IMG/VR virus record: IMGVR_UViG_3300035212_001167
Location: 1-64,000 of that record
DNA length: 64,000 nucleotides
Source: a virus
Reading direction: 5' to 3' (one strand)
Of the stretch, positions 3,042 through 35,983 are shown one piece after another; within the stretch, counting starts at the first letter, position 1; each line of letters opens with the position of its first letter. The translations under genes were made by a program, and so were the position numbers. The notes below the pieces were generated by a model. The model saw nothing but the letters and a program-made list of their open reading frames with translations. It made no database searches and was not told the DNA's origin.

Positions 3042-3983
3042 ATGAAAAAAATATGTCTTGATTTATCGGAAGCAAAGGCAATCGGGGATACCCTTTGCTC
3101 AACCCCCGTACTTAGAAAACTACATCAATCATATGACTCAAAAGTTACCGTTGTAACTAATTTCCCTGAATTATTTAAAAATCATCCTTTGGTTGAAAAG
3201 GTTTACCACTCGAATTCGGTTAATTTAGATTTCATTAAATCTAATTTTATAACTCATAATTCATTTTATGAGAATGGACAAAAAAATAACCGAGGAGTTG
3301 AGTTTAAACATAACCGTATTGACATTAGACAATATCACGCAATTAAACTTGGTTTTATGTTAACCAAAGATGAAATGAATATTGATTATATTCCTGATGA
3401 GTATGAACCAATTAAAGGATTACCTGAGAAATATGTACTAATACACCCCGTCCAAAATTGGCCAAGCAGAACTTGGGATGCGGTTAAATGGATGGAATTA
3501 AGTAAAAAATTAAACGACCATAATATTAGTGTAATTTCAGTTGGTAAAGACTCAAGTGAGGTTGGATTTTTTAATGTTAAAAAACCAATTTTTAATTTTG
3601 AGATTAAAAATGGCCTTAATTTAATGAATAAAACCACATTAAGTCAATCGTGGCATTTAATTAATAAATCATTGTGTTTTGTCACAATGGATTCAGGATT
3701 ACTTCATTTAGCAGGAACAACTGATTCAGAAATCATTCAATTAGGAAGTTCTATCAATTACGAATTTAGAGCCCCATATCGAAATAATTCACAAGAATAT
3801 AAATACCATTATGTTGGTGGTGGTTGTAGTCTGTTTTGTGGTTCAGATATAAAATACGGAGTTAAAGAATGGGGGGATATCCAAGGGGTACCACCTTTAA
3901 TTAATTGTTTAGAAAATAAACCAACATTTGAGTGCCATCCCTCAGTTGAGCAAGTGTTTAATAAAATTTTAGAAATTATATGA
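3042..3983 (+). CDS. Glycosyltransferase, GT9/heptosyltransferase-like with Cys finger
   Basis: This 313-residue protein looks like an ADP-heptose:acceptor (GT9, GT-B fold) transferase. The N-terminus carries the family-like LSEAKAIGDTLCSTPVLRKL loop, the second domain opens with YVLIHPVQNWPSRTW, and the C-terminal half has a donor-site-like DSGLLHLAGTT. Near the C-terminus four cysteines (C262, C266, C289, C298) end in FECHPS. The enzyme at 11280 has FECHKS at the matching place, which suggests a metal-binding finger like that of autotransporter O-heptosyltransferases. It is the first gene of a plus-strand glycan operon; its stop overlaps the next start (ATGA). The sugar and acceptor are not known. 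It lacks membrane segments and should act in the cytoplasm. Confidence 0.75.
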   Translation: MKKICLDLSEAKAIGDTLCSTPVLRKLHQSYDSKVTVVTNFPELFKNHPLVEKVYHSNSVNLDFIKSNFITHNSFYENGQKNNRGVEFKHNRIDIRQYHAIKLGFMLTKDEMNIDYIPDEYEPIKGLPEKYVLIHPVQNWPSRTWDAVKWMELSKKLNDHNISVISVGKDSSEVGFFNVKKPIFNFEIKNGLNLMNKTTLSQSWHLINKSLCFVTMDSGLLHLAGTTDSEIIQLGSSINYEFRAPYRNNSQEYKYHYVGGGCSLFCGSDIKYGVKEWGDIQGVPPLINCLENKPTFECHPSVEQVFNKILEII

Positions 3984-5005
3984 AAATAGGAATATTACTT
4001 TCCGCATACAACTCCGAAGAATATATTGATGAGTGTTTACGTCCTTGGATAAACTTAAAAAATGAATTAGACATTACTATTGGTTGTAATAGTGGTATGT
4101 ACCAGGAATATATTAATTTTGGATTTAAACCAAAGAATAAAGAGACTCTAACTAAATTAATAAATTATGAATTAGACTTTTTAATCACCACAGGAATGAA
4201 ATCATTGTTTGGTGAAAATGAGAGTAAGAATAATGTTTTACATGTCTTAAAGAATAATTGTGATTTAGTTTGGATTGTGGATTCTGATGAGTTTTACACC
4301 GAAGACGAAATTAGAAATATTTTAAATTTTATTCAGGAAACACCTCAATACGATTGGTATTCGGTTAACCTTAAAAATTACACATTTACAAAACAGTTAT
4401 GGGTGGATGGTTTCTGTCCACCAAGAATTTTTAGAACCAATAGGAATGGAGGGATAACTCATTTTTATTTTGACAACCATATCTTATATAACGATGGTGA
4501 AACTTTTGAATCTAAACCAACAATTTCGATACCAAGAGATATTGCATGGGTTAAACATTATTCTTGGTTAAATGAGGATAGTAGGTCTAAAGAAAAAATC
4601 AGTTACCAACAACAAAGATTTGTCGGTGGTTGTTCATTTATTTGGGACGATAAAACCAACTCTTTAAAATATTCAGAAAACTTTTACGAAAGTCGTGGTT
4701 TGGAAAAACCAATTTTACACGAATCAATTGATATCTCCTCAAATGAATTTACAATTGATTTTATTAGAAATGAGAATAAATTTTATATTAAAAATATAAC
4801 TAAACCACAATCACTAAATTTTAGATTTTTTGATGGACAGACAGGGGACCAAATTTATGAAACATTTTTAAACATTCTACCCAAAACAACTTATTTTGTG
4901 TGGCCGTCATCAATTATATTTCACGAAATTAATGAGTTCAAAAAATTCAGAGTTGAGGTGACATTAAACAAACAAATAATCCATAACGAATTTATACACA
5001 TATAA
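3980..5005 (+). CDS. Glycosyltransferase, GT-A type with C-terminal beta module
   Basis: The protein has 341 residues. The N-terminus (GILLSAYNSEEYIDECL) and the DSDE motif near residue 100 (LVWIVDSDEFYTEDE) are typical of GT2-like nucleotide-sugar transferases, where the DxD-type acids bind the metal and donor. Residues from about 250 to the end lack GT features and look like a small beta-sandwich (FTIDFIRNENKFYIKNI..., SLNFRFFDGQ). Similar modules occur in the neighbouring enzymes at 5007, 5960, 8647, 10289 and 11280. The start overlaps the previous stop, so translation is probably coupled. The donor and acceptor are unknown. Confidence 0.75.
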   Translation: MKIGILLSAYNSEEYIDECLRPWINLKNELDITIGCNSGMYQEYINFGFKPKNKETLTKLINYELDFLITTGMKSLFGENESKNNVLHVLKNNCDLVWIVDSDEFYTEDEIRNILNFIQETPQYDWYSVNLKNYTFTKQLWVDGFCPPRIFRTNRNGGITHFYFDNHILYNDGETFESKPTISIPRDIAWVKHYSWLNEDSRSKEKISYQQQRFVGGCSFIWDDKTNSLKYSENFYESRGLEKPILHESIDISSNEFTIDFIRNENKFYIKNITKPQSLNFRFFDGQTGDQIYETFLNILPKTTYFVWPSSIIFHEINEFKKFRVEVTLNKQIIHNEFIHI

Positions 5006-5006
5006 T

Positions 5007-5960
5007 ATGAATAATATTTTTACAGTAACTAATATTGAAGAGAATGGTATAATCCATTTTGACTTTAATGGTGATGACATAAAAGAAATATACGAGGTCT
5101 CAATTATTGATAACAATACGGGATTAACCGTACATAAATCAAACATGGGGTTACGAAAAGGAACCAATTGGTGGATATCGACTGGTGAATCTAACGCAAA
5201 AAGACTTAGAAACATAACCTTATCCATTATGTATGGTGACCTACAATATTCTCAGGAATTAAAACTATTTGGTCAAAATAGATTTTTAGTAATTAACTCA
5301 AAACAAGTTAAATTATCTCACTTGGGGGATGATTTATTTCCAATTGTTACTGAGATTTTTTACGATAAAGTATATGAGAGGGATTTTGTTAGACTTAGCA
5401 TCAATGATACGGTTGTTGATATTGGGGCGAATTACGGAGTATTCTCATTATACTCACAAATGTTTAACCCATCTAACGTTTATGCGGTAGAACCTCTTAA
5501 GGCTACATTTAAAAGTATGAAAAAGAATCTTTCCGAACACGGAGTAACTTGTATTAATAAGGCGGTTAGTAATGAGAATGGGTTTGAGAAATTTATGATA
5601 ACCGAAGTTAATGGTAATAATTTTTCACAAAAAAACGAAAGTGGGTTTCACCCATCAACAGTGATTGGTGAAGAGATTGTTGAGACTATCACTATTAACC
5701 AATTAATTTCTGACTACGATATCGACAGAATTGATTTTTTAAAAGTTGATTGTGAAGGTGGTGAGTTGGATTTATTCCGAACAATTGATAAAGAATATTT
5801 ACAAAATAATATTGGTAAAATTGCAATGGAATACCACTCAAAAGAAATTTACGATGAAGTTTTAGATATACTAAAATCAAACAACTTTATAATTGAGGAT
5901 ACTTTAGGGTCTAACGATATCGGATTAATTTACGCATATAATATTAATTTAATAAAATAA
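5007..5960 (+). CDS. FkbM-family methyltransferase with N-terminal beta module
   Basis: The protein has 317 residues. Residues 1 to about 95 form a beta-rich domain related in look to the accessory module of the adjacent glycosyltransferases. Residues about 110-300 form a class I SAM-dependent methyltransferase of the FkbM type: the SAM loop VVDIGANYGVFSLY, then YAVEPLKATFKSMKKNL, and the family hallmark FLKVDCEGGELDLF. FkbM enzymes methylate hydroxyls, often on glycans or polyketides; here O-methylation of a sugar or fibre side chain is the simplest guess. It lies between two glycosyltransferases, one base after the first, and its stop overlaps the next start (TAATG). Confidence 0.82.
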   Translation: MNNIFTVTNIEENGIIHFDFNGDDIKEIYEVSIIDNNTGLTVHKSNMGLRKGTNWWISTGESNAKRLRNITLSIMYGDLQYSQELKLFGQNRFLVINSKQVKLSHLGDDLFPIVTEIFYDKVYERDFVRLSINDTVVDIGANYGVFSLYSQMFNPSNVYAVEPLKATFKSMKKNLSEHGVTCINKAVSNENGFEKFMITEVNGNNFSQKNESGFHPSTVIGEEIVETITINQLISDYDIDRIDFLKVDCEGGELDLFRTIDKEYLQNNIGKIAMEYHSKEIYDEVLDILKSNNFIIEDTLGSNDIGLIYAYNINLIK

Positions 5961-8647
5961 TGAAAAAGAAAAAAATATTAGTTGTTTCTCCTCATTTAAG
6001 TACTGGAGGAGCGCCTCAAGTCACATTAAATAAAATACAATTAATTAACAATGAATATGAAATCAAATGTGTTGAGTACGCATTTGTTGCTTGGACGTTT
6101 GTCGTTCAAAGAAATCAAATACAAGAATTACTTGGTGATAATTTCCATTCTTTAGGGGAAGATAAAAACGAGTTAATTAGAATTGTTAATGAGTTTAAAC
6201 CTGATGTTGTTAGTATGGAAGAATTTCCTGAATTTTTCATGGATGATTCTGTCACAAAAGAATTATATAGGGAAGATAGGGAATACACAATATTTGAAAC
6301 CACACATGATTCTAGTTTTTCTGTTTCACATAAAAGATGGTTCCCCGATAAATTTATATTCGTAAGTGCGTATAACGCATTTAGATATTCTATATATGAT
6401 ATTCCGTATGACATTGTTGAATACCCTGTAGACTATAAAGAAAAAAATAAAAAACAAAACCAAGAATTATTAGATTTAGACCCAACATATAAACATGTTT
6501 TAAATGTTGGATTGTTCACGGCAAGAAAAAATCAATCCTATATTTTTGACATCGCACATAAATTAAAGGATTATAAAATAAAATTTCATTTTTTGGGTAA
6601 TCAGGCCGAAAACTTCCAATCATATTGGGGTCCGTTGATTAAAAATAAACCTGATAACTGCGTTGTTTGGGGAGAAAGAAAAGACGTACAATCATTTATT
6701 GAAGCGTCGGACTTATTCTTGTTTCCTTCAAAAGGTGACAGAAACAATAAAGAATTAAACCCAATCGCCTTAAAAGAGGCTTTGGAGTATAGAATCCCAA
6801 TGATGATGTATAACTTGGATGTTTATTGTGGAAAATACGATAAGTACGAAAATATAACATTTTTAACAGGAGATATTAATCATGATACATCAAAATTACT
6901 ATCATTATTAAATCCTTATAAAGAAAAATATGATAATAATGAGTTAGTTATTGTTGGTACTTATCCGAATACTAAATCACGAGAAAAATTAACTATCGAA
7001 TGTATTAAGTCTGTTAAAAAATTAGGTCGAAAAGTAATGTTGGTTTCTCATTATCCAGTGTCGAACGATATTCAAAAAATGGTCGACTATTATATTTTTG
7101 ATTCAAATAACCCAACAACAGAACATTCTTATTATACTAAGTTTTATAATTATAAATCAGAGTTTGATGTTGAGATTAACATTAACGGATTAAAAGATAC
7201 TAACCAATCATTACCTGTTTTAACTAATTTAATTAATGGGTTTAAATCCGCAAAAGATTTTAATTTTAATAAAGTATTTTACATAACCTACGATGTTATA
7301 TTACATCATGATGATATTGAATATGTTAATCAATCATTTAAATTGTTGGATGAAAAAGACGCATTCTTATGTACTTTACCTACGGCGTTTAATGTTGGTA
7401 TTGAGACTACCGCAATGACGTTTAAAACTGATTTCTTTTTAGAAAAATTTTCACATATAATAACTAAAGAAATTTACAAATCAGAATGTAGAATAAATAA
7501 TTGTCAAAACTTCTTAGAGGATTTCTTTTATAAGAAATTAATTCACGAACCAACAGTTAATGTCATTACAAATGATAGTCATACATTCTTAATTAATTCA
7601 GGTAAAGGAGTCTCATCTAATTCAGAATACTATTCTATATTACCAATTATTAATAACGAGAATAAATGGGTGTTTTATTTCTACACATATAATATTGATG
7701 ACAGAACAGTTAGTGTTGAGATTAATAAAAATAACGAAACCATTTATTCTAAATCATTTAATATTCTACAAACCCGAGAATTCTTAAAAGAAATTGACTA
7801 CGATGGAGTTCCAATAGAGATTAAGTTAACCTTTTTTGAGGGTGGAGTTCAATATAAATCAGAATCTTACATATTAAATAATGAAACAATAATTAGTTAC
7901 AAAAATAATGGATGGTTTAAGTATAAACGATTACCTAAAATTAAATTAGTTCATTTACAAACAACAAATAACGATGAGAGAGAAATCTTATCAAGAGAGT
8001 CGTTACAACAAGTATCAAAATACGGTATTGAATATGTTTTACATACAAATGAACTATACAAATCTATACCTCCATCACATAATTGTGTTAGACCACAATG
8101 TGTGTCTATGGAACTTTTTGATGAAGAGACAACAAACCGACTAGGTACTGCACTAACACCAGCACATTACGGATGTTTTGAATCATTTAAAAATGGTATT
8201 ATATCTGAATTCGATAAAGATTTGGATTTCTTAATTGTTTGTGAGGGAGACTGTTTAATTGAGGTCCCTATTGAGGAATTCATTGATAAAGTTAAACAAG
8301 TGTGTGATACCGTTATCGAATCGGACATACAATATTTTTCATTTGGGGACACTAAAACATTAGACTTCGCTTGGCATCAATCAAATGTGATTAAAGAAAT
8401 CCCGAACCAAGACTTGTTGTTTATTACTGATAAAATTATTGGGTTACAATGTATTATGTTCCCAAGAAAAACTAGAGAATTCTTATACGAACAATTACGT
8501 AATCATAAGTGGGATTGTGCTGACTCATATTTCAACCTTATTTTTATCGAACATGGGTTAAATATGGGTATTCTAAAAAACAGAATTACAACTCAAGCTG
8601 ATGGAGTGTCATTAATCGATAAGGAATTTAAAACATTTATTAAGTAA
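5960..8647 (+). CDS. Multidomain glycosyltransferase (GT4 + GT-A-like + GT25-like)
   Basis: This 895-residue protein is a fusion of at least three catalytic-looking parts. Residues 1 to about 320 are a GT4-type GT-B enzyme: LSTGGAPQVTLNK at the N-terminus, NVGLFTARKNQ in the middle, and a donor-site-like FPSKGDRNNKELNPIALKEALEY. Residues about 325-560 (ELVIVGTYPNTKSREKL) match the start of the stand-alone protein at 8647 and, less closely, the one at 10289. Residues about 570-655 look like the beta accessory module. Residues about 660-895 resemble GT25/LPS-type transferases (LTPAHYGCFESFKNG, then LDFLIVCEGDCLIE). It overlaps both neighbours by 1 base. One polypeptide could add several sugars in order; that is inference. 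Confidence 0.75.
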   Translation: MKKKKILVVSPHLSTGGAPQVTLNKIQLINNEYEIKCVEYAFVAWTFVVQRNQIQELLGDNFHSLGEDKNELIRIVNEFKPDVVSMEEFPEFFMDDSVTKELYREDREYTIFETTHDSSFSVSHKRWFPDKFIFVSAYNAFRYSIYDIPYDIVEYPVDYKEKNKKQNQELLDLDPTYKHVLNVGLFTARKNQSYIFDIAHKLKDYKIKFHFLGNQAENFQSYWGPLIKNKPDNCVVWGERKDVQSFIEASDLFLFPSKGDRNNKELNPIALKEALEYRIPMMMYNLDVYCGKYDKYENITFLTGDINHDTSKLLSLLNPYKEKYDNNELVIVGTYPNTKSREKLTIECIKSVKKLGRKVMLVSHYPVSNDIQKMVDYYIFDSNNPTTEHSYYTKFYNYKSEFDVEININGLKDTNQSLPVLTNLINGFKSAKDFNFNKVFYITYDVILHHDDIEYVNQSFKLLDEKDAFLCTLPTAFNVGIETTAMTFKTDFFLEKFSHIITKEIYKSECRINNCQNFLEDFFYKKLIHEPTVNVITNDSHTFLINSGKGVSSNSEYYSILPIINNENKWVFYFYTYNIDDRTVSVEINKNNETIYSKSFNILQTREFLKEIDYDGVPIEIKLTFFEGGVQYKSESYILNNETIISYKNNGWFKYKRLPKIKLVHLQTTNNDEREILSRESLQQVSKYGIEYVLHTNELYKSIPPSHNCVRPQCVSMELFDEETTNRLGTALTPAHYGCFESFKNGIISEFDKDLDFLIVCEGDCLIEVPIEEFIDKVKQVCDTVIESDIQYFSFGDTKTLDFAWHQSNVIKEIPNQDLLFITDKIIGLQCIMFPRKTREFLYEQLRNHKWDCADSYFNLIFIEHGLNMGILKNRITTQADGVSLIDKEFKTFIK

Positions 8648-9624
8648 TGAAAAAATTAATAGTTATCGGAGCATACCCGAATACACCAAAAAAAGAACAA
8701 GTTCTAATTAATGAAATAAACTCATTAAAAAATAGTGGTTTTGATTTTATGTTAGTTAGTCATTACCCTGTATCAATTGAATTACAATCAATGGTTGAGT
8801 ATTATATTTACGATAAAAACCAAACTTTAACACCATTAGATAAATCACCGTATTATTGGTTTAAAACCGACTCTTTTTTCTTAAGGGTTAATAACTCAAG
8901 ACATTCGTTACCGATTTGTCAAAATATGTTTAACGCATTTAAATTTGCCGATATAAAAAAATACGATTTTGTTTATTTTATTGAGAATGATAATTTATTC
9001 TCGGAAAATGATGTTACAAAATTAAATCAATTGGTTGATACTATGGTTGAGGAAAGAAAGAAATGTATTTTCTTTAAACCTGAGGGGTATAGAGATAGTG
9101 GGTCTTATGTTTATGAGACACAACTATTCGGGATTACACCTTCCTACTTTAATGAAATTTTAAAATTACCTGTCACAGAAAATGAGTGGTACGAACACTT
9201 AATGCCGTTAACATTAGAGTTGGCGTTTTTCCAAAAATTACAACATTATGAGCATGAGTTTTTAATAATCAACGAACACTCAAGTGAGTATTTTAATGAA
9301 AGTGATATTAATTTATTTAGGGTTGAGAATTTTATGATTGAGGTATTACATAACGTTAAAGACCCATCAACACCAATATTATATTGTCACAGTGGTGTCA
9401 GAAATTCATATGAATATCGAGTCGTTGTTAAAATGAATAATAAAGTCATTACAGATAAAATTGTTTATCCTACACATTGGTTTTATATACCACTATCTTT
9501 AAGAGACGATAAATTAATAATTGAGGTGTACGAAAATGATACAATAGAATATGTGAAAACATTAGTATTAAATGAGGATAGTTTAGAACAAATAAAAGAA
9601 AAAGGATTAATTGAATTTAATTAA
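8647..9624 (+). CDS. Glycosyltransferase-like protein, paralogue of 5960 middle domain
   Basis: This 325-residue protein begins LIVIGAYPNTPKKEQVLINE, closely matching residues from about 325 of the 895-residue enzyme just upstream, including LVSHYPVS and VEYYIYD. The acidic motif YFIENDN near residue 115 fits a GT-A donor/metal site. Residues about 235-325 form a beta-type tail (YEYRVVVKMNNKVITDKIVY, HWFYIPLSL) like the accessory module of the neighbours. It overlaps the previous stop (TAATG) and is followed directly by a methyltransferase gene. Tandem duplication followed by fusion would explain the two copies. The family is otherwise not recognised, so sugar specificity cannot be given. Confidence 0.62.
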   Translation: MKKLIVIGAYPNTPKKEQVLINEINSLKNSGFDFMLVSHYPVSIELQSMVEYYIYDKNQTLTPLDKSPYYWFKTDSFFLRVNNSRHSLPICQNMFNAFKFADIKKYDFVYFIENDNLFSENDVTKLNQLVDTMVEERKKCIFFKPEGYRDSGSYVYETQLFGITPSYFNEILKLPVTENEWYEHLMPLTLELAFFQKLQHYEHEFLIINEHSSEYFNESDINLFRVENFMIEVLHNVKDPSTPILYCHSGVRNSYEYRVVVKMNNKVITDKIVYPTHWFYIPLSLRDDKLIIEVYENDTIEYVKTLVLNEDSLEQIKEKGLIEFN

Positions 9625-10287
9625 ATGAAAAGAGATATTAGATTAGTTAGTATATTTAATAAACCAATGGTGGTATTTGATGGCCCTGAATGTATTTCAG
9701 ATGACATAGTAAAATACAATAATTTTTGGGAATTTAAGATTGTTAACAAATGGTTACATTTTTTTCCTAAAAACGGTCTTTATCTGGATATTGGGGCTAA
9801 CATAGGTAATCACTGCGTACAATTAAAACATTATTTACCAAATATATCTATTTGGGCTTTTGAGCCGTATTTTGAAAATTATGAATTACTTAGATTAAAC
9901 ACTAAACAATTGGATAACGTACATTGTTTTTGTTTAGGTGTTGGTAGTTGTAATTCCATGGTACATTTCGACAATGGTCATGACTCTAATAGTGGTGTTG
10001 TTAAAGTAGTTGAGTATAGTAATAACACTAATTTAGTAATTTCTTTAGATACATTTAATTTACCCGAACCCGTTAAGTTTATTAAAATTGATGTTGAGGG
10101 ATTTGAAAAATCTTCGTTTGAAGGAATGGTTAATTTATTAGAAAAAGATAAACCGATGATTTGGTTAGAAGATATTGGTGGGGACGCGGTCACGTTTTTA
10201 CTAATGAAAGATTATATCATTGTCGATTCTCAGGAAGAGAGTAGAGATTATTTAATGGTTCACATAACCAACAAACACAAATATTAA
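9625..10287 (+). CDS. FkbM-family SAM-dependent methyltransferase
   Basis: This 220-residue protein is a compact FkbM-type methyltransferase without the beta module found in the one at 5007. The SAM-binding loop LYLDIGANIGNHCVQLK lies near residue 52, followed by IWAFEPYFENYELL, and the family signature FIKIDVEGFEKSSFEGM near residue 150. These enzymes O-methylate sugars or related hydroxyl groups; capping of a glycan is a reasonable guess from the surrounding glycosyltransferases. The gene starts directly after the previous stop and ends 1 base before the next ATG. Length agrees with minimal members of the family. Confidence 0.85.
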   Translation: MKRDIRLVSIFNKPMVVFDGPECISDDIVKYNNFWEFKIVNKWLHFFPKNGLYLDIGANIGNHCVQLKHYLPNISIWAFEPYFENYELLRLNTKQLDNVHCFCLGVGSCNSMVHFDNGHDSNSGVVKVVEYSNNTNLVISLDTFNLPEPVKFIKIDVEGFEKSSFEGMVNLLEKDKPMIWLEDIGGDAVTFLLMKDYIIVDSQEESRDYLMVHITNKHKY

Positions 10288-10288
10288 A

Positions 10289-11278: not shown

Positions 11279-11279
11279 T

Positions 11280-13781: not shown

Positions 13782-13784
13782 ATT

Positions 13785-29200: not shown

Positions 29201-30950
29201 CTGTTCCTGAACTACCGCTTGTCCCTGATGAACCATCTGTTCCGCTTGTTCCTGAAGAACCTGACGTACCATTAGTTCCGTTAACACCACTAATTCCACT
29301 TGAACCCGAGGTACCACTTGAACCATCGGTACCACTTGTTCCTGAACTACCGTCAGTTCCACTTGTTCCTGAAGAACCATCAGTTCCTGAAGTACCTGAA
29401 CTCCCACTTGTTCCTGAAGAACCGCTAGTCCCTGAAGAACCATCCGTTCCACTTGTTCCTGAAGAACCATCTGTTCCTGAACTTCCGCTTGTTCCTGAAC
29501 TACCGTCAGTTCCGCTAGTTCCTGATGAACCATCTGTTCCTGAACTACCGTCAGTTCCACTTGTTCCTGAAGAACCATCAACACCACTTAATCCGCTTGA
29601 ACCCGAAGTGCCTGAACTTCCGTCAGTTCCACTTGTTCCTGATGAACCATCTGTTCCTGAACTTCCGCTAGTTCCTGATGAACCATCTGTTCCTGAAGTT
29701 CCTGAACTACCGTCAGTTCCGCTTGTACCTGAACTACCATCTGTACCACTTGAGCCCGATGTTCCTGAAGAACCATCTGTTCCACTAGTTCCTGATGAAC
29801 CATCTGTTCCTGAACTACCGTCAGTACCGCTTGTTCCTGAAGAACCGTCAATACCACTAGTTCCTGAACTACCGTCAGTTCCACTTGTACCTGAACTACC
29901 GTCAGTTCCACTTGTACCTGAACTACCATTGGTACCACTTGTTCCGCTTGAGCCCGATGTTCCTGAAGAACCATCTGTTCCTGATGTTCCTGAAGACCCA
30001 CTATTTCCTGACGTACCTGAACTACCATCGGTCCCACTAATACCTGAAGTCCCTGAAGAACCATTAACACCACTTATACCACTAGACCCTGAAGTTCCCG
30101 AAGAACCATCAGCACCTGAAGTTCCCGAACTACCGTCAGTTCCTGAAGTTCCTGAAGAACCGTCAATCCCACTTGTTCCTGAAGAACCTGACGTTCCTGA
30201 AGAACCGTCAGTCCCACTTGTTCCTGAACTACCATCAGTACCTGAAGTACCTGATGAACCATCAGTACCCGAACTTCCACTAGTCCCTGAAGAGCCGTTA
30301 GTCCCTGAAGAGCCGTTAGTCCCTGAAGAGCCGTTAGTTCCTGAAGAACCACTACTACCAGAAGAACCACTACTACCTGACGTACCCGATGTTCCTGATG
30401 AACCACTTTCACCCGAAGAACCCGATGAACCCGATGAACCGTTAGTTCCTGAAGAACCGTTAGTTCCTGAAGAACCGTTAGTTCCTGAAGAACCACTACT
30501 ACCAGAAGAACCACTTGAACCTGAACTTCCTGATGAACCACTTGAACCTGAACTTCCTGATGAACCACTTGTTCCACTAGAACCTGATATTCCTGAAGTA
30601 CCACTTGAACCTGATGTTCCTTTAGTTCCTGAACTACCCGAAGAACCGCTACTTCCTGATGTTCCACTACTTCCTGAAGAACCACTTAAACCTGAAGTAC
30701 CATTTTGACCACTTGAACCTGACGAACCATTAACACCACTTGTTCCTGATGAACCATTAACACCACTTGTTCCTGCAGTACCTGAAGTACCAGCAAGGGA
30801 TAGAGCATCCGCAATTTGTTGGATACTTGCTTTATATGATGAACCTGCGGGGTTTTGTGATGTATCACCCGTAATGACAATGTGTACAATGTCATCTGGA
30901 GATACTATCGGAGCTTGGGTTCTGTCGGTCAGTCTTTGATAATTCGGCAT
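23289..30950 (-). CDS. Giant collagen-like fibre protein with Asp-rich half (2553 aa)
   Basis: Residues 1 to about 53 are a unique head (MPNYQRLTDRTQAPIV, ASIQQIADAL). Collagen-like triplets follow for about 2350 residues. The N-terminal half carries many GTD and some GTN triplets, in units such as GSSGTSGTDGSSG and about eight copies of GLSGVDGSSGTSG. The C-terminal half has almost only GTS, GSS and GTA. The last 150 or so residues form a tip (FDGTTLGITGDTIEQ ... ISVGTRIVF) of the kind found at fibre ends. It lacks the GTR marks of the 3117-residue fibre; basic triplets are nearly absent, apart from one GTK. Acidic stalks here and basic marks there could serve register or pairing; that is speculation. 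The gene has its own octamer promoter and terminator. Confidence 0.85.
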   Translation of the reverse strand: MPNYQRLTDRTQAPIVSPDDIVHIVITGDTSQNPAGSSYKASIQQIADALSLAGTSGTAGTSGVNGSSGTSGVNGSSGSSGQNGTSGLSGSSGSSGTSGSSGSSGSSGTKGTSGSSGTSGISGSSGTSGSSGSSGSSGSSGSSGSSGSSGSSGSSGTNGSSGTNGSSGTNGSSGSSGSSGESGSSGTSGTSGSSGSSGSSGSSGTNGSSGTNGSSGTNGSSGTSGSSGTDGSSGTSGTDGSSGTSGTDGSSGTSGSSGTSGIDGSSGTSGTDGSSGTSGADGSSGTSGSSGISGVNGSSGTSGISGTDGSSGTSGNSGSSGTSGTDGSSGTSGSSGTSGTNGSSGTSGTDGSSGTSGTDGSSGTSGIDGSSGTSGTDGSSGTDGSSGTSGTDGSSGTSGSSGTDGSSGTSGTDGSSGTSGTDGSSGTSGSSGTDGSSGTSGTDGSSGTSGSSGLSGVDGSSGTSGTDGSSGTDGSSGTSGTDGSSGTSGSSGTDGSSGTSGTDGSSGTSGSSGTSGSSGTSGTDGSSGTSGTDGSSGTSGTDGSSGTSGSSGISGVNGTNGTSGSSGTSGTDGSSGTSGSSGTDGSSGTSGTNGSSGTSGTDGSSGTSGTSGTDGSSGTSGTSGSSGLSGVDGSSGTSGTDGSSGTSGTDGSSGTSGTDGSSGTSGTSGTDGSSGTSGTSGSSGLSGVDGSSGTSGTDGSSGTSGSSGTSGTDGSSGTSGTDGSSGTSGTSGSSGSSGTSGTDGSSGTSGTDGSSGTSGSSGTDGSSGTSGSSGTSGSSGSGGSSGTSGTDGSSGTSGTDGSSGTSGTDGSSGTSGTDGSSGTSGSSGTDGSSGTSGTDGSSGTSGSSGLSGVDGSSGTSGTDGSSGTSGSSGTDGSSGTSGTSGTDGSSGTSGTSGTSGTDGSSGTSGSSGLSGVDGSSGTSGTDGSSGTDGSSGTSGSSGTSGSSGTDGSSGTSGTDGSSGTSGSSGSSGTSGTDGSSGTSGTDGSSGSSGSSGISGVNGSSGTSGTNGSSGTSGSSGTDGSSGTSGSSGTSGTDGSSGTSGTDGSSGTSGTDGSSGTSGTDGSSGTSGTSGTDGSSGTSGTDGSSGTDGSSGTSGTDGSSGTSGTSGTDGSSGTSGTNGSSGTSGSSGLSGVDGSSGTSGTDGSSGTSGSSGTSGTDGSSGTSGTDGSSGTSGSSGTDGSSGTSGTSGTDGSSGTSGTSGTDGSSGTSGSSGTDGSSGSSGTSGTDGSSGTSGTSGTDGSSGTSGTDGSSGTSGTSGTDGSSGTSGTDGSSGTSGTDGSSGTSGTSGTDGSSGTSGTDGSSGTSGSSGLSGVDGSSGTSGIDGSSGTSGTSGTDGSSGTSGSSGSSGTSGSSGTSGTSGSSGLSGVDGSSGTSGTDGSSGTSGTDGSSGTSGTSGTDGSSGTSGTSGTDGSSGTSGTSGTDGSSGTSGTSGTDGSSGTDGSSGTSGTSGTDGSSGTSGTDGSSGTDGSSGTSGSSGISGVNGSSGTSGTSGSSGTSGSSGTSGSSGTSGSSGTSGSSGTSGSSGSSGSSGTSGSSGTSGTSGSSGSSGTSGSSGSSGTSGTDGSSGTSGSSGTSGSSGTSGSSGTSGSSGTSGTSGSSGSSGSSGTSGTSGSSGSSGSSGSSGSSGTAGTSGTSGSSGSSGTSGSSGTSGSSGTSGTSGSSGTSGTNGSSGTSGSSGSSGTSGTSGSSGTSGTSGSSGTSGSSGTSGSSGTSGSSGTNGSSGTSGTSGSSGTSGTSGSSGSSGSSGSSGTSGSSGTSGTSGSSGTSGTSGTSGTSGSSGTSGSSGTSGTSGSSGTSGTSGSSGSSGTNGSSGTSGSAGTSGTSGTSGTSGSSGTSGSSGSSGSSGSSGSSGTSGSSGSSGSSGTAGTSGSSGTSGSSGSSGTSGTSGSSGSSGSSGSSGTSGTSGSSGSSGTSGSSGTSGTSGSSGTSGTSGSSGTSGSSGTSGSSGSSGTSGTSGTSGSSGTSGSSGSSGSSGTSGSSGTSGSSGTSGTSGSSGSSGSSGSSGSSGTSGSSGTAGTSGSSGTSGTSGSSGSSGSSGSSGSSGTSGSSGSSGSSGSSGTAGTSGTSGSSGSSGSSGSSGTSGTSGSSGSSGSSGSSGSSGSSGTSGTSGSSGTAGTSGTSGSSGTSGSSGTSGSSGSSGSSGSSGSSGTAGTSGSSGTSGSSGSSGSSGSSGSSGTSGSSGSSGTSGSSGTAGTSGTSGSSGSSGTSGSSGTSGSSGTAGTSGSSGTSGTSGSSGSSGSSGTAGTSGTSGSSGSSGSSGSSGTSGTSGSSGTSGSSGSSGTSGSSGTAGTSGSSGTSGTSGSSGTSGTSGSSGTSGTSGSSGTSGTSGTSGTSGSSGTSGSSGSSGTSGSSGSSGTSGSSGTSGTSGSSGTTGTSGTSGLQGTSGTSGTSGTSGSSGTSGLSPVVSGNDNEVLTSDGAGGITSEPNLTFDGTTLGITGDTIEQGNQSLQSCRETGVTTTTLICRFPFASGSSATFDYYVYDSGTNAMRSGIIMTVWDGTNTAFTDSSTPDLNASTVAVKFYTVIIGSNLELYAAIGGGTWDISVGTRIVF
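23741..30793 (-). repeat. Collagen-like repeat region (about 7 kb), Asp-rich then Ser/Thr-only
   Basis: Continuous Gly-X-Y coding repeat. Asp or Asn sits in the Y position (GTD, GTN, GVD, GVN) mainly between about 26500 and 30300. Downstream of that in the protein the triplets are GTS, GSS and GTA. Confidence 0.88.
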
Positions 30951-30997: not shown

Positions 30998-31300
30998 TTA
31001 TTGGTCTTCGAATATATAAATATTTGCATCCATGAAAATAAAGATTTCTCCGTCTTGATAAATCTTACCTTTCTCGTCACAATAAATTATTCCGAACTTT
31101 TCGCACCCCAAAGAGTCTATGATTTTTATTCCAACGGCGGGGGCTGAATTGAATGTGGTTGGTAGTACAATAGATATTGATGGAGGTACTTGAGTGTTAA
31201 TAGTTGAAATTAAAACACATTGATTCCCATACACATCACACGCATATAAATCATACGGTAATGTAACTCCAGAAACTCCAGTAATCTCAATTTGTGTCAT
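30998..31300 (-). CDS. Small beta-domain protein, adhesin attachment module-like
   Basis: This 100-residue protein has a single beta-type domain (MTQIEITGVSGVTLPYDLYACD) with four cysteines and an acidic, aromatic tail. It resembles the first domain of the Pro/Thr-rich protein at 2356-2949, which suggests a shared module attached to different stalks or used alone. It sits between a LamG adhesin gene and a giant fibre gene on the same strand. A terminator and a promoter octamer precede it, so it begins a transcription unit. There is no signal peptide. A chaperone or adaptor for the fibre is possible; the sequence alone does not decide. Confidence 0.6.
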   Translation of the reverse strand: MTQIEITGVSGVTLPYDLYACDVYGNQCVLISTINTQVPPSISIVLPTTFNSAPAVGIKIIDSLGCEKFGIIYCDEKGKIYQDGEIFIFMDANIYIFEDQ

Positions 31301-31391: not shown

Positions 31392-32426
31392 TTAATAAGG
31401 AGTGTCAGAACTACGTGTTATTGCCCCAACAATAACGGTACTACCTAAATTACTAAGGTCTTGTTGAAAAGAGGGTGAATTTAATGAGTCAATTAAAAGA
31501 ACACAGTCACCATCATTAATTTGATTAGTGGACGCACCTCCGTAAGGATTTGCACCTTGTATTGGTAATAATGAACTTTTGGGGGTTGTAAACCCACTTG
31601 TATATACAATATTTCTACATATCCTTATATCAGTAAGTTTCGCATCTAAAAAATTACTACTCGATAGTAAAGAGCCAAAATAAATTAAACCAATAGTGTT
31701 ACTAATCAGAGTGTTAGGTATTCCAACGGCAGTTTTGTCATTACCATCAAAATAGACTTTAACTTGACCATTGTCACATGTAATTGCAATGTGTTGCCAA
31801 ACATTTGTTGACAATGGTAGAGATATCGCATTACCAGTGGATAATCCGTGAAGACAACTATCTGATGGGTCAATATATAAATTTAAATCACCACCACCAA
31901 ATGAAGCACTTTGACTAAATATGTATTGGTTACTACCTGTTGATACTGGATTTCCAAAATACCAAAATTCAATTGTAAAGAATTCATTAACTGTACCAAT
32001 ATGAGTAGGAATAATCCTTGCCGTATTAGAACTATTTGGAAATATTAACGAACCTGGATTTACTTCCCAAGAAGACCAATGTCCAAAACCGTTCATCCAA
32101 ATATACGCCTCGTCACCTGTTGTGTAAGTTTTACTACTAACAAATCCCGCCTTTTCAACAAATGAAATTTCATTTAACGACAACGACCTCCAAAATCCTA
32201 CATACGCAGAAATCCCTAACGGATTTGGTTGTGTTCCTGTTGGAACTGAGTGAGCGATTACATACCCAAGGTCTTCATCGGGTCCGTTCCACCATTGAAT
32301 TCCACCTGGTTGTAATGTGTAGTCTTGGTCGTCAACCCCAATAGTTAATGTACTATTAAATACTCGGATAGCCCCATTGATTAGTGATAATGTTGGATTA
32401 TATGCAAATGGTCTTGATGTTGACAT
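31392..32426 (-). CDS. LamG/concanavalin-like virion adhesin
   Basis: This 344-residue protein carries a laminin-G-type (Laminin_G_3-like) domain at about residues 140-270: FFTIEFWYFGNP, then WQHIAITCDNGQVKVYFDG, a strand order typical of the fold, and a closing TDIRICRNIVY. Such domains bind carbohydrates and are frequent in phage tail tips and bacterial adhesins. The N-terminal 130 residues (INGAIRVFNSTLTIG, IQWWNGPDEDLGYVIAH) are probably the attachment part. It is flanked by stalk and fibre genes on the same strand, so it may bind host surface glycans. A promoter octamer lies 16 bases upstream and a terminator directly downstream. Confidence 0.75.
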   Translation of the reverse strand: MSTSRPFAYNPTLSLINGAIRVFNSTLTIGVDDQDYTLQPGGIQWWNGPDEDLGYVIAHSVPTGTQPNPLGISAYVGFWRSLSLNEISFVEKAGFVSSKTYTTGDEAYIWMNGFGHWSSWEVNPGSLIFPNSSNTARIIPTHIGTVNEFFTIEFWYFGNPVSTGSNQYIFSQSASFGGGDLNLYIDPSDSCLHGLSTGNAISLPLSTNVWQHIAITCDNGQVKVYFDGNDKTAVGIPNTLISNTIGLIYFGSLLSSSNFLDAKLTDIRICRNIVYTSGFTTPKSSLLPIQGANPYGGASTNQINDGDCVLLIDSLNSPSFQQDLSNLGSTVIVGAITRSSDTPY

Positions 32427-32483: not shown

Positions 32484-32981
32484 TTATAAACCAATTGTTG
32501 GTGTTACACAAGGGGTGCGAGTTAATGTTGGTGTTGGTCTTGGAGCACGAGTTGGTTTTGGGGTTGGTGTTGGGGTGGCGCAAGGGTCAAAAGTAGGGGT
32601 TGGTGTTGGGTGTAGTGTTGGAGTTGGTGTTTTGGTTGGTTTAGGCGTTTTAGTTGGTTGTGGGGGGCAAGGAGTGTCTGTTGGTGTTGGTGTTGGCGTA
32701 CTTGTAGGAATAGGAGTTGGGGTACTTGTAGGTGTTGGTGTAGGTGTTGGTGATGGAATTGGTCTAACAACAGTTAAGAAGTTAGGGCAGTCAGAATTAA
32801 TAACTAATATAGTATAAACACCATAAACCTCTCTTGGGGGAGTTAATAAGTTAGGTTCAAATAAAAAAGGTAATAATACATCACCTAAATTAATAGCGTC
32901 CATACTGTTGTCAGGTTTAAAAACAACATTAGCAATTTGACCATTATAATTGATACTAGATATTACAATTGTTTCATTCAT
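32484..32981 (-). CDS. Pro-Thr-rich stalk protein
   Basis: This 165-residue protein has a beta-type domain at residues 1-68 ([20 protein letters not shown]; one CPNF-type cysteine) and then a long tail made mostly of TPTPTP with Lys and Arg toward the end ([23 protein letters not shown]). Proline-threonine tails are extended, protease-resistant spacers and are common O-glycosylation targets. The start codon overlaps the stop of the 1001-residue gene (ATGA), so translation is coupled and the two proteins are probably made in similar amounts. The GV-rich readings on the opposite strand are shadows of this repeat. Confidence 0.65.
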
Positions 32982-35900
32982 ATACTTAAATTATTTGGGT
33001 CACAATCACAATTGATATCAACAACTGTTACAGTTCCTCCACCATTAAGTTTAATTACATTGATGGCACATTTATAAGTTATGGTAACATATAATGGTAC
33101 ATCAATAACTTCGACAGTATTATCACAATATAAAATTTGATACGTTGAACCAGTTCCAGGTCCAAATCCACTATATAATTGGAATGTTTTGCAACAAGAT
33201 GAACAATCTCCAATAACCGTATACGTCAGAAAATTTATATGCTGTATTCCTGCACCGCCTCCATATAGACAACTACCTATAATATTTGGTAGTGGTACCC
33301 AATTATTCATTCCCCCAATTGGTGTAAGACTATTTATAGGAAGATATGCGAGTGGGTTAGGTAATGGATAATATGTGGACATATCCTCTAAAATCCAATA
33401 ATTATTTATATTATCCCAAGAAATCCTCATTAATACGGTGGGTGGGGCGATAGAGTAATAAGTGAAATAATATGATGATTTACCATTAATCTGAGTTGAA
33501 GGACTTATATTTGATGGTAATGCAATTGTACCAGTACAATCCGTTAAATCATCAATAAAACGAATACACTCTCCAGGTGTATAAACCGTAGGTGTAGGTG
33601 TAGGTGTAGGTGTTGGTGTTGAAGTTGGTGTTGAAGTTGGTGTTGAAGTGTTAGTCGGTGTTGGTGTTGGGGTGTTAGTTGGTGTTGGGGTCGGTGAATA
33701 TGTGGTTGTAGTTGTTGTTAAATTTGAGGTTGTAGTTGTTGTTGTTAAATTTGAGGTTGTAGTTGTTGTCGTTAAATTTGAGGTTGTTGTTGTCGTTGTG
33801 GTTAAATTTGTGGTGGTGGTTGTTGTTGTTTCTCCAGATATTTGGTATGTAAAGTCGTTAGGTAAACAAACCGATGTCGAGCAGTCAGGACAATCAGGGT
33901 TAAACATTCTGAAAGTATTTTTTAATAAATTAAAGTTGTGTTTTACCTCAGGAGCCGATAATGGGGTAACATACATTCTAAATTGTGAAATGGCACCATC
34001 AAAAGTTCCCGCAAAATTCTGTTCAATTAATATATTAGTTTTTAACCCATTAAATGTTGTCCCCGATAAATCATTAATTGGGAAATTTTCAGGGTCTTGA
34101 ATATAAGGTCCGTAAGGTTGCGTCATAGATGAAAAAGTTAAATTTTCTCTAAGTCCTTGGGTACCTCCACCCCACGATATATTAAATGGAACACCAACTT
34201 GTTTTTCTTTGTCGGTATCTAACCCTCTTGGGATAATCTCCTCAAAATTTTCAATTGTATGAAATAATTTACCATTAACGTAAATCTTAAGTCTCCCATT
34301 TCGATATAATTTATCAATTAACCATTTTTCATTTAATCTAACCAACTCAATTTGTTCTGATGTTTTACCACCAATTTGAGTGTATGGTATTGTAATTAAT
34401 GATGTTGCATTATTTGCTAATGATTCTAAATAAAGTTTTTCAGTTATATCACCAAGTCCTCCTCGATACCATAAATCACACGTATCTAACCATGTATATC
34501 TTTCCCATACCGCATCTACTTGAAACCAATGTTCCTCCTCTAACCACGCGGGATTCTCTAATAAACATGTAGGGTAAATTGGGGGTGTACAATAATCAAC
34601 AATAGTGTGTCCTGTAGTGTACGTAATTCCACTTGTTTCACAAGAACCCGTAGTAACACAGTCTCCTGTGAATTTTAACATTCTAACTCCGATACCAGGA
34701 TTTTTTGGGTCACCACATAATCTAAAAGATAATGCGTTTGACATAGAATCATATATTGGATTTGTTTCACAAGTATTTTCGATTGATGTAAATCCTGTAT
34801 TACAGTTATAACAAGTTGTGGTTGTTGTACAAACATCACATGATGGTGTGCAAACAGGTGGTAGTTCACAATCAGGTATTGGCGTTGGAGGGGGTGTTGG
34901 TGTTGGTGTTGGGATAATTATAGTGTCGCATATGTGTGTTTGACATTCCCACCCACAAGTTTCACAAGGGTCTAAATTACAATCACAACCACAAGTAATT
35001 TTCTTTTCTGGGTCTCCATTACAACTACTACACCCATAATTAACGTGAGGGTCATGAATATTATTTACTGACCTTGGCGGATAAACAAATACACATCTAC
35101 TATCCGTAATTGTTCTATTACAACAAGCACATGTTTGTAGTTGAGTTAGACCTGATGTTACTCGATTGTACCCCGAAAAACACAATGGACTACCACTGGC
35201 GTGGTGATAAAATTTATTTTCAGCTCTAGTTCCAAAATAAAAAAAAGTATTCTTATTGTTTGGATAAATTTCATTAAGAGTTGTTTCATTAGGTAATGGA
35301 GAATACTCATTGATAAGTCTTGGTTTCAAAACCATTTCAACGGACCATCCTTTATTCATTCTTTCAGGAAAAATCTCATAATCAAAACCAAATAATTTAT
35401 AAAACCCTTGATAAAAACCACCATATAATTCGTGGTATCTACCCTCAAAAGGGCTTGATTTACTAACCACTTCGTATAAAACGGTTTTATTAAACCCCGA
35501 AAATCTTACGTTAGGTAAATTGGTGTGACCTGTAACTTGATGTAACTTTAATCTTCGGTCGTAATACATTCTATTGAATTTTAAATAATCAGAATATAAA
35601 CCTTTAGTGAATGTTATCGTTTCACCCGTCATTTGGTTGACTAATCCGTTGTCAACACCTGTTAACCCAATATCACATGATGTTGATGATGAGTAACAAG
35701 TCAAATCATCATTATTTGGATTGTAATAATTTTGAGATACAAAAATATTATTATTATTGTATTGTTTATATGAAAGTGTTTGGTTTTGAACACTTAAAGG
35801 ATTGTTAATGTCAAAATAAACAGGAAGTCGGTTTCCGTATGTTTGTGCAATCAAATATGGGGAGAAAACAACCTCTTGATTGTAGTCTTGTTCATCTGAG

Positions 35901-35983
35901 GTCAAAGACATATCATTGGAATCTAAATTAAGTTTTAGAGACCAATTTGAGCGGACGTATTGATTTATATTTTGACTTGCCAT
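32978..35983 (-). CDS. Large Cys-rich virion adhesin with Thr-rich stalk
   Basis: The protein has 1001 residues. Residues 1 to about 270 and about 470-710 look like parts of one or two lectin-type beta-sandwiches ([48 protein letters not shown]). Between them lies a cysteine-dense insertion (about 285-470: [32 protein letters not shown]) with its own TP linker. Residues about 730-800 form a mucin-like stalk of Thr runs broken by SNL units and then TP repeats. The C-terminal 180 residues form another Cys-containing domain. The layout fits a surface adhesin; the insertion could bind metal or be disulfide-bonded. It has an octamer promoter 9 bases upstream. Confidence 0.68.

What the first reader, a model, noticed from the sequence alone, without database searches (positions are those of the whole stretch)
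3042..35983. Phage-encoded protein-glycosylation system next to giant Ser/Thr-repeat fibres
Seen: six glycosyltransferase or glycosyltransferase-like genes and two FkbM methyltransferases form one overlapping operon (3042-13753). It sits directly beside two genes whose products carry thousands of Thr and Ser residues in Gly-Thr-Ser/Gly-Ser-Ser triplets, plus Thr-Pro stalks. One enzyme resembles the O-heptosyltransferases that act on Ser/Thr repeats of bacterial adhesins. Known: glycosylated Thr can stabilise proline-poor collagen helices, for example in vent-worm cuticle collagen. Inference: the phage decorates its own fibres to stabilise or mask them.
Basis: partly seen in the sequence, partly recalled or inferred. 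Interest (0 to 1): 0.9.

Follow-up and report, generated by a model that had tools for sequence, protein, structure and literature searches.

The report
Phage sugar-coating kit for giant fibres
Some large phages carry a cluster of sugar-attaching enzymes next to genes for enormous, proline-free, collagen-like fibres, and the key enzyme is so regularly found with this fibre type that the phages most likely coat their own fibres with sugar.

Summary
Nine packed genes (3042-13753) include six glycosyltransferase-like genes, two FkbM and a DUF6165. They converge, across a terminator-like hairpin, on two giant Gly-(Thr/Ser)-Ser fibres (852 and 784 triplets, no proline in them); a third is cut by the record end.

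The key gene, 11280-13382, joins a GT4 domain to a relative of TibC/Aah (BAHT), which O-heptosylates Ser of bacterial adhesins. Viral records with the enzyme also hold the Ser/Thr fibre in 25 of 25 at 80 kb or more, 44 of 45 at 50 kb or more, and 61 of 79 overall. Records chosen by capsid and lacking the enzyme: 1 of 22. Proline-type collagen records hold the enzyme in 0 of 34. The link is mainly one-way: 18 of 41 Ser/Thr-fibre records hold the enzyme.

Corrections: TibC uses Ser, and here Ser fills Y while Thr sits at X, so the vent-worm Thr analogy fits poorly. Phage enzymes keep the catalytic residues and iron finger, but 88 of 90 have no alignable thumb tip and 77 of 90 lack the Arg tied to ADP-sugar specificity. 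Donor and oligomeric state are open; no glycan has been shown.

The parts
1..1162 (-). Third collagen-like fibre gene, cut by the record end (387 aa; GTS/GEN/GES/GLS triplets)
   Evidence: 102 triplets, 133 of 204 X/Y are Ser/Thr, 0 Pro; PF01391 over cut-off
1152..2315 (-). Protein of unknown family beside the third fibre (possible fibre/baseplate part)
   Evidence: no Pfam or PHROG hit at E<=0.01
2356..2949 (-). Thr-Pro stalk protein (197 aa)
   Evidence: translation; no PHROG hit
3042..3983 (+). GT9-family glycosyltransferase
   Evidence: PF01075 55 bits; weak match to PDB 1psw heptosyltransferase II, E 3e-4
3980..5005 (+). GT2-like glycosyltransferase
   Evidence: PF00535 20.7 bits, below the 23.3 cut-off
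5007..5960 (+). FkbM-type methyltransferase
   Evidence: PF05050 70 bits; TIGR01444 98.5 bits
5960..8647 (+). GT4 glycosyltransferase; another part is related to the gene at 8647
   Evidence: PF00534 40.7 bits; relatives of this gene match the 8647 product in tblastn
8647..9624 (+). Glycosyltransferase-like protein, predicted GT-A-type fold
   Evidence: AF2 pLDDT 86; Foldseek E 1e-6; VIA Z 14.2 to glycogenin, residues 1-228
9625..10287 (+). FkbM-type methyltransferase
   Evidence: PF05050 38.9 bits; TIGR01444 68.5 bits
10289..11278 (+). Divergent relative of the 8647 protein
   Evidence: alignment A5; shared tblastn hits
11280..13382 (+). GT4 domain fused to a TibC/Aah (BAHT)-like protein O-glycosyltransferase; candidate enzyme that puts the first sugar on the fibres
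   Evidence: TIGR04414 285.3 bits, cut-off 200; PDB 4rb4/4rap TibC E 8e-51; catalytic Asp, Lys, Trp and four iron-finger Cys kept, thumb tip and Arg-286 not
13382..13753 (+). DUF6165 protein, predicted helical bundle
   Evidence: PF19662 33.4 bits; AF2 pLDDT 90, no PDB match at E<=0.001
13751..13782 (.). Bidirectional terminator-like hairpin between the operon and the convergent fibre gene
   Evidence: 14-pair stem listed on both strands
13785..23138 (-). Giant collagen-like fibre 1 (3117 aa): N-terminal domain, three G-X-Y blocks, two interruption domains, C-terminal domain
   Evidence: 852 triplets, 1605 of 1704 X/Y Ser/Thr
23289..30950 (-). Giant collagen-like fibre 2 (2553 aa), one run of 784 triplets
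   Evidence: 1391 of 1568 X/Y Ser/Thr, 0 Pro in triplets
30998..31300 (-). Small protein next to fibre 2, unknown
   Evidence: no Pfam or PHROG hit
31392..32426 (-). Laminin-G/ConA-like domain protein, phage structural type
   Evidence: PF13385 48 bits; PHROG structural families
32484..32981 (-). Thr-Pro stalk protein (165 aa)
   Evidence: translation
32978..35983 (-). 1001-aa protein with poly-Thr and Thr-Pro stretches
   Evidence: translation; no family hit

Best explanation
This is a phage-encoded glycosylation system for the phage's own giant Gly-(Thr/Ser)-Ser fibres. The BAHT-like half of the 11280-13382 protein transfers a sugar to fibre Ser hydroxyls, most likely the Ser in the Y position (always followed by Gly), before the chains assemble. 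The fused GT4 domain and the neighbouring GT9, GT4, GT2-like and GT-A-like enzymes extend the glycan, and FkbM enzymes may methylate it. The fibre is then a densely sugar-coated filament. Glycans would stiffen a chain that has no proline and would otherwise be expected to be floppy, and may shield it. Shown here: gene content, enzyme homology with kept catalytic residues, fibre composition, and a regular pairing of enzyme and fibre. Inferred: the acceptor site, the order of steps, any glycan and its effect. The donor is unknown: the window enzyme lacks a recognisable TibC thumb tip and the adenine-contacting Arg, so it need not be a dodecamer nor use ADP-heptose.
For: 1. TIGR04414 285 bits against a cut-off of 200; TibC structures at E 8e-51. 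Asp-110 and Lys-230 equivalents in 90 of 90 non-redundant phage-side rows, Trp-305 and each of the four iron Cys in 89 of 90. In TibC, changing these abolishes or largely diminishes activity (PMC4358343).
2. Enzyme to fibre: 61 of 79 records, 54 of 57 at 25 kb or more, 44 of 45 at 50 kb or more, 25 of 25 at 80 kb or more. By enzyme cluster with a record of at least 50 kb: 29 of 29 at 95% and 16 of 16 at 70% identity.
3. Controls: among 24 capsid-chosen records, 2 have the enzyme and both have the fibre; 1 of 22 without the enzyme has it (Fisher p 0.011). TIGR04414 in 18 of 41 Ser/Thr-fibre records (17 over its cut-off) against 0 of 34 proline-type collagen records (p 3e-6; 16 of 39 without the two records of mixed type, p 8e-6).
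4. Fibres found only through the enzyme (31 loci with at least 20 triplets) share one composition: X is Thr 0.59 / Ser 0.29, Y is Ser 0.74. Proline-type phage collagens (85 loci) have X Pro 0.51, Y Thr 0.36.
5. In bacteria, 4 of 5 large proteins tested near the enzyme gene match the AIDA stalk repeat at E<=0.001, 2 of them over the Pfam cut-off; this is the known substrate type. In phages the fibre takes that place, on the opposite strand in 49 of 50 loci.
6. Mapped TibC sites are Ser, not Thr.
Against: No glycan or activity has been measured. The fibre often occurs without the enzyme on the stretch recorded: 23 of 41 fibre records of at least 25 kb lack it, and 4 of 13 of at least 80 kb (sizes). 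LR756504 (636 kb) has a distant relative (36%) and no such fibre. One record, L100, carries proline-type and Ser/Thr-type triplets together with the enzyme; it was counted with the Ser/Thr set, otherwise the proline set would be 1 of 35. Bacterial rows form one clade, and one origin of the phage enzymes is not ruled out, so the cluster counts are not independent events. Arg-286 is Thr and the thumb tip is missing in the window enzyme; in TibC, changing either abolishes or largely diminishes activity on autotransporters. FkbM is not enriched (10 of 28 against 4 of 22). An ADP-heptose kinase-like gene is in only 3 of 28 enzyme-bearing records, below the model's cut-off.
Confidence: 0.74

Rival explanations
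1. The glycosyltransferases remodel the host's surface polysaccharide to block superinfection. The fibres are simply neighbours in the host-recognition region.
For: Glycosyltransferases beside tail fibres in pelagimyophages are read this way (PMC7029224, passages read). GT9 at 3042 resembles LPS heptosyltransferases. Flavobacterium phage immuto, a capsid relative, has a GT cluster without this fibre.
Against: The gene that pairs with the fibre is a relative of a protein O-glycosyltransferase, TIGR04414 over its cut-off. It pairs with one fibre composition and was not found in 34 proline-type collagen records.
Confidence: 0.1
2. The enzyme glycosylates another protein, such as the Thr-Pro stalk proteins or a host adhesin, and the fibre is linked by common ancestry of one module.
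For: Thr-Pro stalk genes sit next to the fibres. One origin of the phage enzymes is not ruled out.
Against: The fibre accompanies enzymes down to about 43% identity, including a 735-kb phage and Mel-JY01. Among capsid relatives enzyme and fibre agree (both present or both absent) in 23 of 24 records. Mapped TibC sites are Ser, whereas the stalks are Thr-rich.
Confidence: 0.09
3. The fibres are glycosylated but are not collagen triple helices: they are extended mucin-like bottlebrushes or polyglycine-II-type bundles. (A question within the best explanation, not exclusive of it.)
For: No proline and almost no charged residues in fibre 1 (0 Asp/Glu, 18 Arg, 2 Lys in 852 triplets), so the usual triple-helix stabilisers are missing; (GSS)n is flexible-linker-like (general knowledge).
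Against: Gly at every third residue for up to 784 triplets without a break, matching PF01391 over its cut-off.
Confidence: 0.4
4. The repeats are unmodified low-complexity spacers, and the operon serves some unrelated purpose.
For: 23 of 41 Ser/Thr-fibre records of at least 25 kb lack the enzyme, so the fibre can exist without it, at least on the stretch recorded.
Against: Fibre presence in 25 of 25 enzyme-bearing records of at least 80 kb against 1 of 22 controls.
Confidence: 0.06

Closest known systems
BAHT family: TibC, Aah (autotransporter O-heptosyltransferases; TIGR04414; PDB 4rap, 4rb4)
   Same: HMM over its cut-off; catalytic Asp-110, Lys-230, Thr-226 and Trp-305 equivalents and the C-X2-C-X15-C-X11-C iron finger kept; gene beside a Ser-rich repeat protein
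   Different: No alignable thumb tip, Arg-286 replaced by Thr, fused to a GT4 domain, partner is a collagen-like fibre and not an AIDA/TibA beta-helix
Mimivirus collagen glycosyltransferases (R699, L230)
   Same: A virus encodes both collagen-like proteins and their glycosyltransferase (PMC9546862, abstract and outline read; L230 recalled)
   Different: Virus of amoebae; hydroxylysine acceptor; unrelated enzyme family (last point recalled)
Bacillus BclA and C. difficile BclA1 glycosylated collagen-like spore proteins
   Same: Prokaryotic collagen-like chain that is glycosylated (PMC8968730, passages read)
   Different: Proline at X and Thr at Y is the commonest bacterial pattern (same paper); spore surface, not virion; different enzymes (recalled)
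Riftia (vent worm) cuticle collagen
   Same: Glycosylated Thr and not hydroxyproline stabilises the triple helix (cited in PMC6953826, passage read)
   Different: Thr at the stabilising position; here Thr is almost confined to X and Ser fills Y
Glycosylated mycobacteriophage virions
   Same: Phage-encoded glycosyltransferase acting on the phage's own virion proteins (recalled; one search gave a listing only)
   Different: Capsid and tail-tube proteins, not collagen-like fibres (recalled)

Membership tests
BAHT (TibC/Aah) | Sequence family TIGR04414 above curated cut-off | tested here: met
   285.3 bits, cut-off 200
BAHT (TibC/Aah) | Four-Cys iron finger (Cys-339, 342, 358, 370 in TibC) | tested here: met
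   present in the window protein; each Cys in 89 of 90 phage-side rows
BAHT (TibC/Aah) | Catalytic Asp-110 and donor-binding Lys-230, Thr-226, Trp-305 | tested here: met
   all four kept in the window protein; Asp and Lys 90 of 90, Trp 89 of 90, Thr 81 (Ser 9) of 90 phage-side rows
BAHT (TibC/Aah) | Arg-286 contacting adenine (ADP-sugar specificity) | tested here: not met
   Thr in the window protein; Arg in 17 of 18 bacterial and 13 of 90 phage-side rows
BAHT (TibC/Aah) | Beta-hairpin thumb with hydrophobic tip (Phe-265, Val-266) | tested here: not met
   tip columns are gaps in 88 of 90 phage-side rows including the window; the segment holds 5-8 residues in 68 of 90, 12-20 residues of other sequence in 22 of 90, and 16 in 18 of 18 bacterial rows. 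By sequence alignment only.
BAHT (TibC/Aah) | N-terminal beta-barrel | tested here: inconclusive
   alignment to TibC starts at TibC residue 48; PF21129 not listed for the window protein, weak in Mel-JY01
BAHT (TibC/Aah) | Ring dodecamer | not testable with these tools
   needs biochemistry; the missing thumb tip argues against it
BAHT (TibC/Aah) | Transfers heptose from ADP-heptose | not testable with these tools
   only an indirect hint: HldE-kinase-like gene in 3 of 28 enzyme-bearing records, 0 of 22 controls
BAHT (TibC/Aah) | Encoded beside an autotransporter or AIDA-type adhesin | tested here: not met
   window neighbours are collagen-like fibres; 4 of 5 proteins tested beside bacterial relatives match the AIDA repeat
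Collagen-like proteins (PF01391) | Uninterrupted Gly-X-Y triplets | tested here: met
   runs of 684 and 784 triplets; PF01391 over cut-off
Collagen-like proteins (PF01391) | Proline/hydroxyproline as stabiliser | tested here: not met
   0 Pro in 1738 triplets of the three fibres
Collagen-like proteins (PF01391) | Forms a triple helix | not testable with these tools
   needs circular dichroism or diffraction
FkbM methyltransferases | PF05050/TIGR01444 over cut-off | tested here: met
   5007 and 9625

The most novel reading that the evidence does not exclude
A distinct class of virus-made, proline-free Gly-(Thr/Ser)-Ser collagen whose rod form depends on dense O-glycosylation of the Y-position Ser. 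The sugar is laid down by a phage-specific branch of the TibC family that has lost the ring-forming thumb and switched donor nucleotide. If triple-helical, the filaments would be over half a micrometre long (784 triplets at about 0.86 nm each, helix rise recalled). Phages would then have two chemistries for collagen: proline type, and glycosylated Ser/Thr type.
Probability: 0.35. Interest if true: 0.9.

Novelty: new variant of a known kind. Interest (0 to 1): 0.79.

Why it matters
It gives a concrete enzyme-substrate pair for some of the many glycosyltransferases found next to phage tail fibres, which the two phage papers read here put down to host-surface or DNA modification (PMC7029224, PMC10202952; passages). 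It would extend TibC-type protein O-glycosylation from bacterial adhesins to phage fibres, and offer a natural test of whether sugars can replace proline in collagen-like rods. One named isolate, Microcystis phage Mel-JY01, carries both parts, so the idea can be tested directly by virion glycoproteomics.

Tried and rejected
Tried and not helpful: (a) FkbM as part of the core: 10 of 28 enzyme-bearing records against 4 of 22 controls, p 0.22. (b) Phage-made ADP-heptose: TIGR02198 in 3 of 28 against 0 of 22, all below cut-off. Window gene 39989-40447 fits ADP-heptose adenylyltransferase and glycerol-3-phosphate cytidylyltransferase models equally (69.8 and 69.2 bits, both below cut-off), so it is not counted. 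(c) A second GT for the fibre records without the enzyme: the representative of one recurrent neighbour cluster, a GT8-GT9 fusion (L229), proved to be full-length in two loci only. PF01075 in 17 of 41 fibre records fell in enzyme-bearing records only. Anp1 (3 of 130 neighbour proteins) was not followed. (d) DUF6165 fold: helical bundle, no PDB match at E<=0.001. (e) PDB sequence search with the 5960 protein and with alignment A5: nothing useful. (f) Literature: no title or abstract start listed reports this pairing; two searches listed 15 of 37 and 12 of 64 papers, and the library holds open-licence PMC only. (g) Antisense ORFs such as 16654-22857 plus (2067 aa) are shadows of the repeats.

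Rows dropped or not used, and uneven criteria: one search kept the best 80 of 109 relatives (79 loci). In its flanks any run of 8 Gly-X-Y triplets counted as fibre; in whole records and in the capsid control a 5-triplet Ser/Thr pattern did. each held 120 loci, 80 listed; whole-record searches used those of at least 25 kb among the listed: 45 Ser/Thr and 34 proline. Four of the 45 (L219, L239, L264, L281) were GCS repeats, had no match, and were dropped to give 41. L100, matched by both patterns, was put in the Ser/Thr set. L099 and L132 of the 34 show no run of 8 triplets. One search kept the best 80 of at least 600 capsid relatives; the 24 of at least 25 kb were used. In one search, 22 near-duplicate rows were left out, giving 90 phage-side rows (the Polaromonas-bin contig L344 among them) and 18 bacterial rows. 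In one search, 17 rows could not be scored. In one search, five proteins were picked by size and composition from 19 loci.

Full report
WHAT IS THERE. The window is part of an 88,263-base IMG/VR record of a T4-like phage with a Gp23 capsid gene at 62024-63895. Its best-matching named capsid records are LR756508, Microcystis phage Mel-JY01 and Flavobacterium phage immuto, at 41-46% over about half of the protein. Nine packed genes at 3042-13753 encode GT9, GT2-like, FkbM, GT4, a GT-A-fold protein, FkbM, a relative of that GT-A-fold protein, a GT4 domain fused to a TibC-like domain, and DUF6165. They face, across a two-way terminator-like hairpin at 13751-13782, two fibres of 3117 and 2553 residues. 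A third, cut by the record end, lies at 1-1162. The triplet parts hold 852, 784 and 102 Gly-X-Y units. The X/Y residues are 1605 of 1704, 1391 of 1568 and 133 of 204 Ser/Thr, with no proline. The longest run in 200 shuffles of each sequence is 10 triplets or fewer, against 684, 784 and 102 observed.

THE KEY ENZYME. The C-terminal half of the 11280-13382 product passes TIGR04414 (autotransporter O-heptosyltransferase) with 285 bits against a cut-off of 200 and matches the TibC structures at E 8e-51. The TibC paper (PMC4358343; abstract, passages and section 11 read) names Asp-110 as candidate catalytic base; Lys-230, Trp-305, Thr-226 and Arg-286 as donor contacts; Cys-339/342/358/370 as iron finger; and a thumb (Phe-265, Val-266) needed for the dodecamer. 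It reports Ser and not Thr as mapped acceptor sites. On an alignment of 90 non-redundant phage-side and 18 bacterial sequences, Asp and Lys are kept in 90 of 90 phage-side rows, and Trp and each Cys in 89 of 90. The thumb-tip columns are gaps in 88 of 90 phage-side rows; that segment has 5-8 residues in 68 rows (the window among them) and 12-20 residues of other sequence in 22, against 16 in all 18 bacterial rows. Arg-286 is kept in 17 of 18 bacterial but only 13 of 90 phage-side rows; the window has Thr. So the chemistry is likely kept, while ring assembly and nucleotide choice have probably changed. I therefore describe the enzyme as a BAHT-derived variant and do not call it a heptosyltransferase.

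CO-OCCURRENCE. A viral-contig search with this protein found 109 relatives, of which 79 loci were kept. Fifty have collagen-like runs within the fetched flanks, all Ser/Thr-rich and nearly or wholly without proline. Eleven of the other 29 have them elsewhere in the record. In all that is 61 of 79; by record length 54 of 57 (25 kb or more), 44 of 45 (50 kb or more) and 25 of 25 (80 kb or more). In the single miss of at least 50 kb, L028, the enzyme runs off the contig end. Clustering the enzyme at 95, 90, 80 and 70% gives 29 of 29, 26 of 26, 20 of 20 and 16 of 16 clusters with a record of at least 50 kb. In 49 of the 50 loci the nearest run is on the opposite strand.

CONTROLS. Capsid relatives were chosen by Gp23 alone: 24 records of at least 25 kb. 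The enzyme is in 2 and the fibre in 3. Both enzyme-bearing records have the fibre; among the 22 others one does, and there it lies about 3 kb from the contig end. Fisher p is 0.011 within this set. Starting from the fibre, TIGR04414 is in 18 of 41 Ser/Thr-fibre records (17 over cut-off) and 0 of 34 proline-type collagen records; PF01075 is also 0 of 34 there. L100 carries both triplet types and the enzyme and was counted with the Ser/Thr set; leaving out L100 and the mixed L245 gives 16 of 39. The link is therefore strong from enzyme to fibre and only moderate from fibre to enzyme; the records are mostly fragments, and 9 of 13 fibre records of at least 80 kb have it. Named phages: Mel-JY01 and the 735-kb LR756501 have both parts; the 636-kb LR756504 has a distant enzyme and no such fibre. 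Phage immuto has neither, despite its own GT cluster.

ANCESTRY. In a tree of 88 sequences, 15 of 16 rows from bacterial genomes form one supported clade (100/99). The sixteenth, a Polaromonas metagenome bin (L344), falls among the phage sequences and has a 57-residue Ser/Thr triplet run 14 bases past its enzyme gene, on the opposite strand, so it is probably a phage contig. Two of the 18 genomes behind the bacterial loci match the 5-triplet pattern: this one, and a Burkholderia with a six-triplet run on another contig. Beside bacterial relatives, 4 of 5 tested large proteins match the AIDA stalk repeat at E<=0.001, two over the cut-off, one with 32 copies. Gene adjacency thus points to the substrate in bacteria, and in phages the fibre takes that place. 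One origin of the phage enzymes is not ruled out, so cluster counts are not counts of independent events; patchy presence among capsid relatives is the better argument.

FIBRE CHEMISTRY. Fibres reached through the enzyme (31 loci with at least 20 triplets, near-duplicates removed) average X = Thr 0.59, Ser 0.29 and Y = Ser 0.74, Thr 0.08. Proline-type phage collagens (85 loci) have X = Pro 0.51 and Y = Thr 0.36. In window fibre 1, Thr is at X 350 times and at Y 3 times, and Ser is at Y 787 times. The vent-worm precedent (cited in PMC6953826, passage read) concerns Thr at the stabilising position, so it does not carry over directly. Ser at Y, always followed by Gly, is the natural acceptor for a TibC-type enzyme. 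Whether the product is a triple helix, a mucin-like brush or a polyglycine-II bundle cannot be told from sequence.

MECHANISM AND LIMITS. Proposed order: the BAHT-like domain adds the first sugar to fibre Ser; the fused GT4 and neighbouring GTs extend it; FkbM may methylate it. A GT4-type match accompanies the enzyme in 74 of 79 loci, while the other operon genes vary and FkbM is not enriched, which suits a constant first step and changing outer sugars. None of these steps has been measured. The rival that the GTs act on host LPS, argued for pelagimyophages (PMC7029224, passages read), is less likely because the gene that pairs with the fibre is a protein O-glycosyltransferase relative tied to one fibre composition. 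No title or abstract start listed by my searches (two of the lists capped) reports this pairing; the nearest viral precedent seen is the mimivirus hydroxylysine system (PMC9546862, abstract and outline).

Noticed in passing
window 38767-50601 (+): A second glycan-related stretch: GT (38767), nucleotidyltransferase (39989), two-domain GT2 (41763), a DegT aminotransferase fragment (43262), a methyltransferase (43888) and two GT2 genes (45516, 49040), mixed with dUTPase, an exonuclease and PhoH.
   Followed up: partly
L082 2-3049 (Microcystis phage Mel-JY01, PP395634): The Ser/Thr collagen gene appears to be annotated on the wrong strand: the deposited CDS at 739-2298 minus is a shadow of the + strand GTS/GSS open frame.
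   Followed up: yes
neighbours of proline-type phage collagens (alignment A2): 2OG-Fe(II) oxygenases (4 of 130 neighbour proteins) and one PLOD-type GT lie beside proline-type collagens; neither is among the 25 of 72 families shown for neighbours of Ser/Thr fibres. This suggests a hydroxylation route for that class.
   Followed up: no
L344 (contig CALMEI010000048.1, binned as Polaromonas): Phage-type enzyme gene with a Ser/Thr triplet run 14 bases away in a bacterial bin, probably a misplaced phage contig; the run lies in no listed open frame of 110 aa or more, so it may be partial or broken.
   Followed up: partly
L227 12250-12978 (-): Short HldE-kinase-like gene (TIGR02198, 116 bits, below cut-off) beside a Ser/Thr fibre; similar short genes in 3 of 28 enzyme-bearing records.
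   Followed up: partly
L229 5534-7129 (+): GT8-GT9 fusion protein beside a Ser/Thr fibre in a locus where the BAHT-like gene was not found.
   Followed up: partly
window 13382-13753 (+): DUF6165: 16 other distinct relatives recur near phage BAHT-like genes in either orientation; also in Synechococcus phage S-SRM01; helical bundle of unknown role.
   Followed up: partly
LR756504 (L084): Distant BAHT-like protein (36%) in a 636-kb phage with no Ser/Thr fibre found: the exception to the pairing, substrate unknown.
   Followed up: partly
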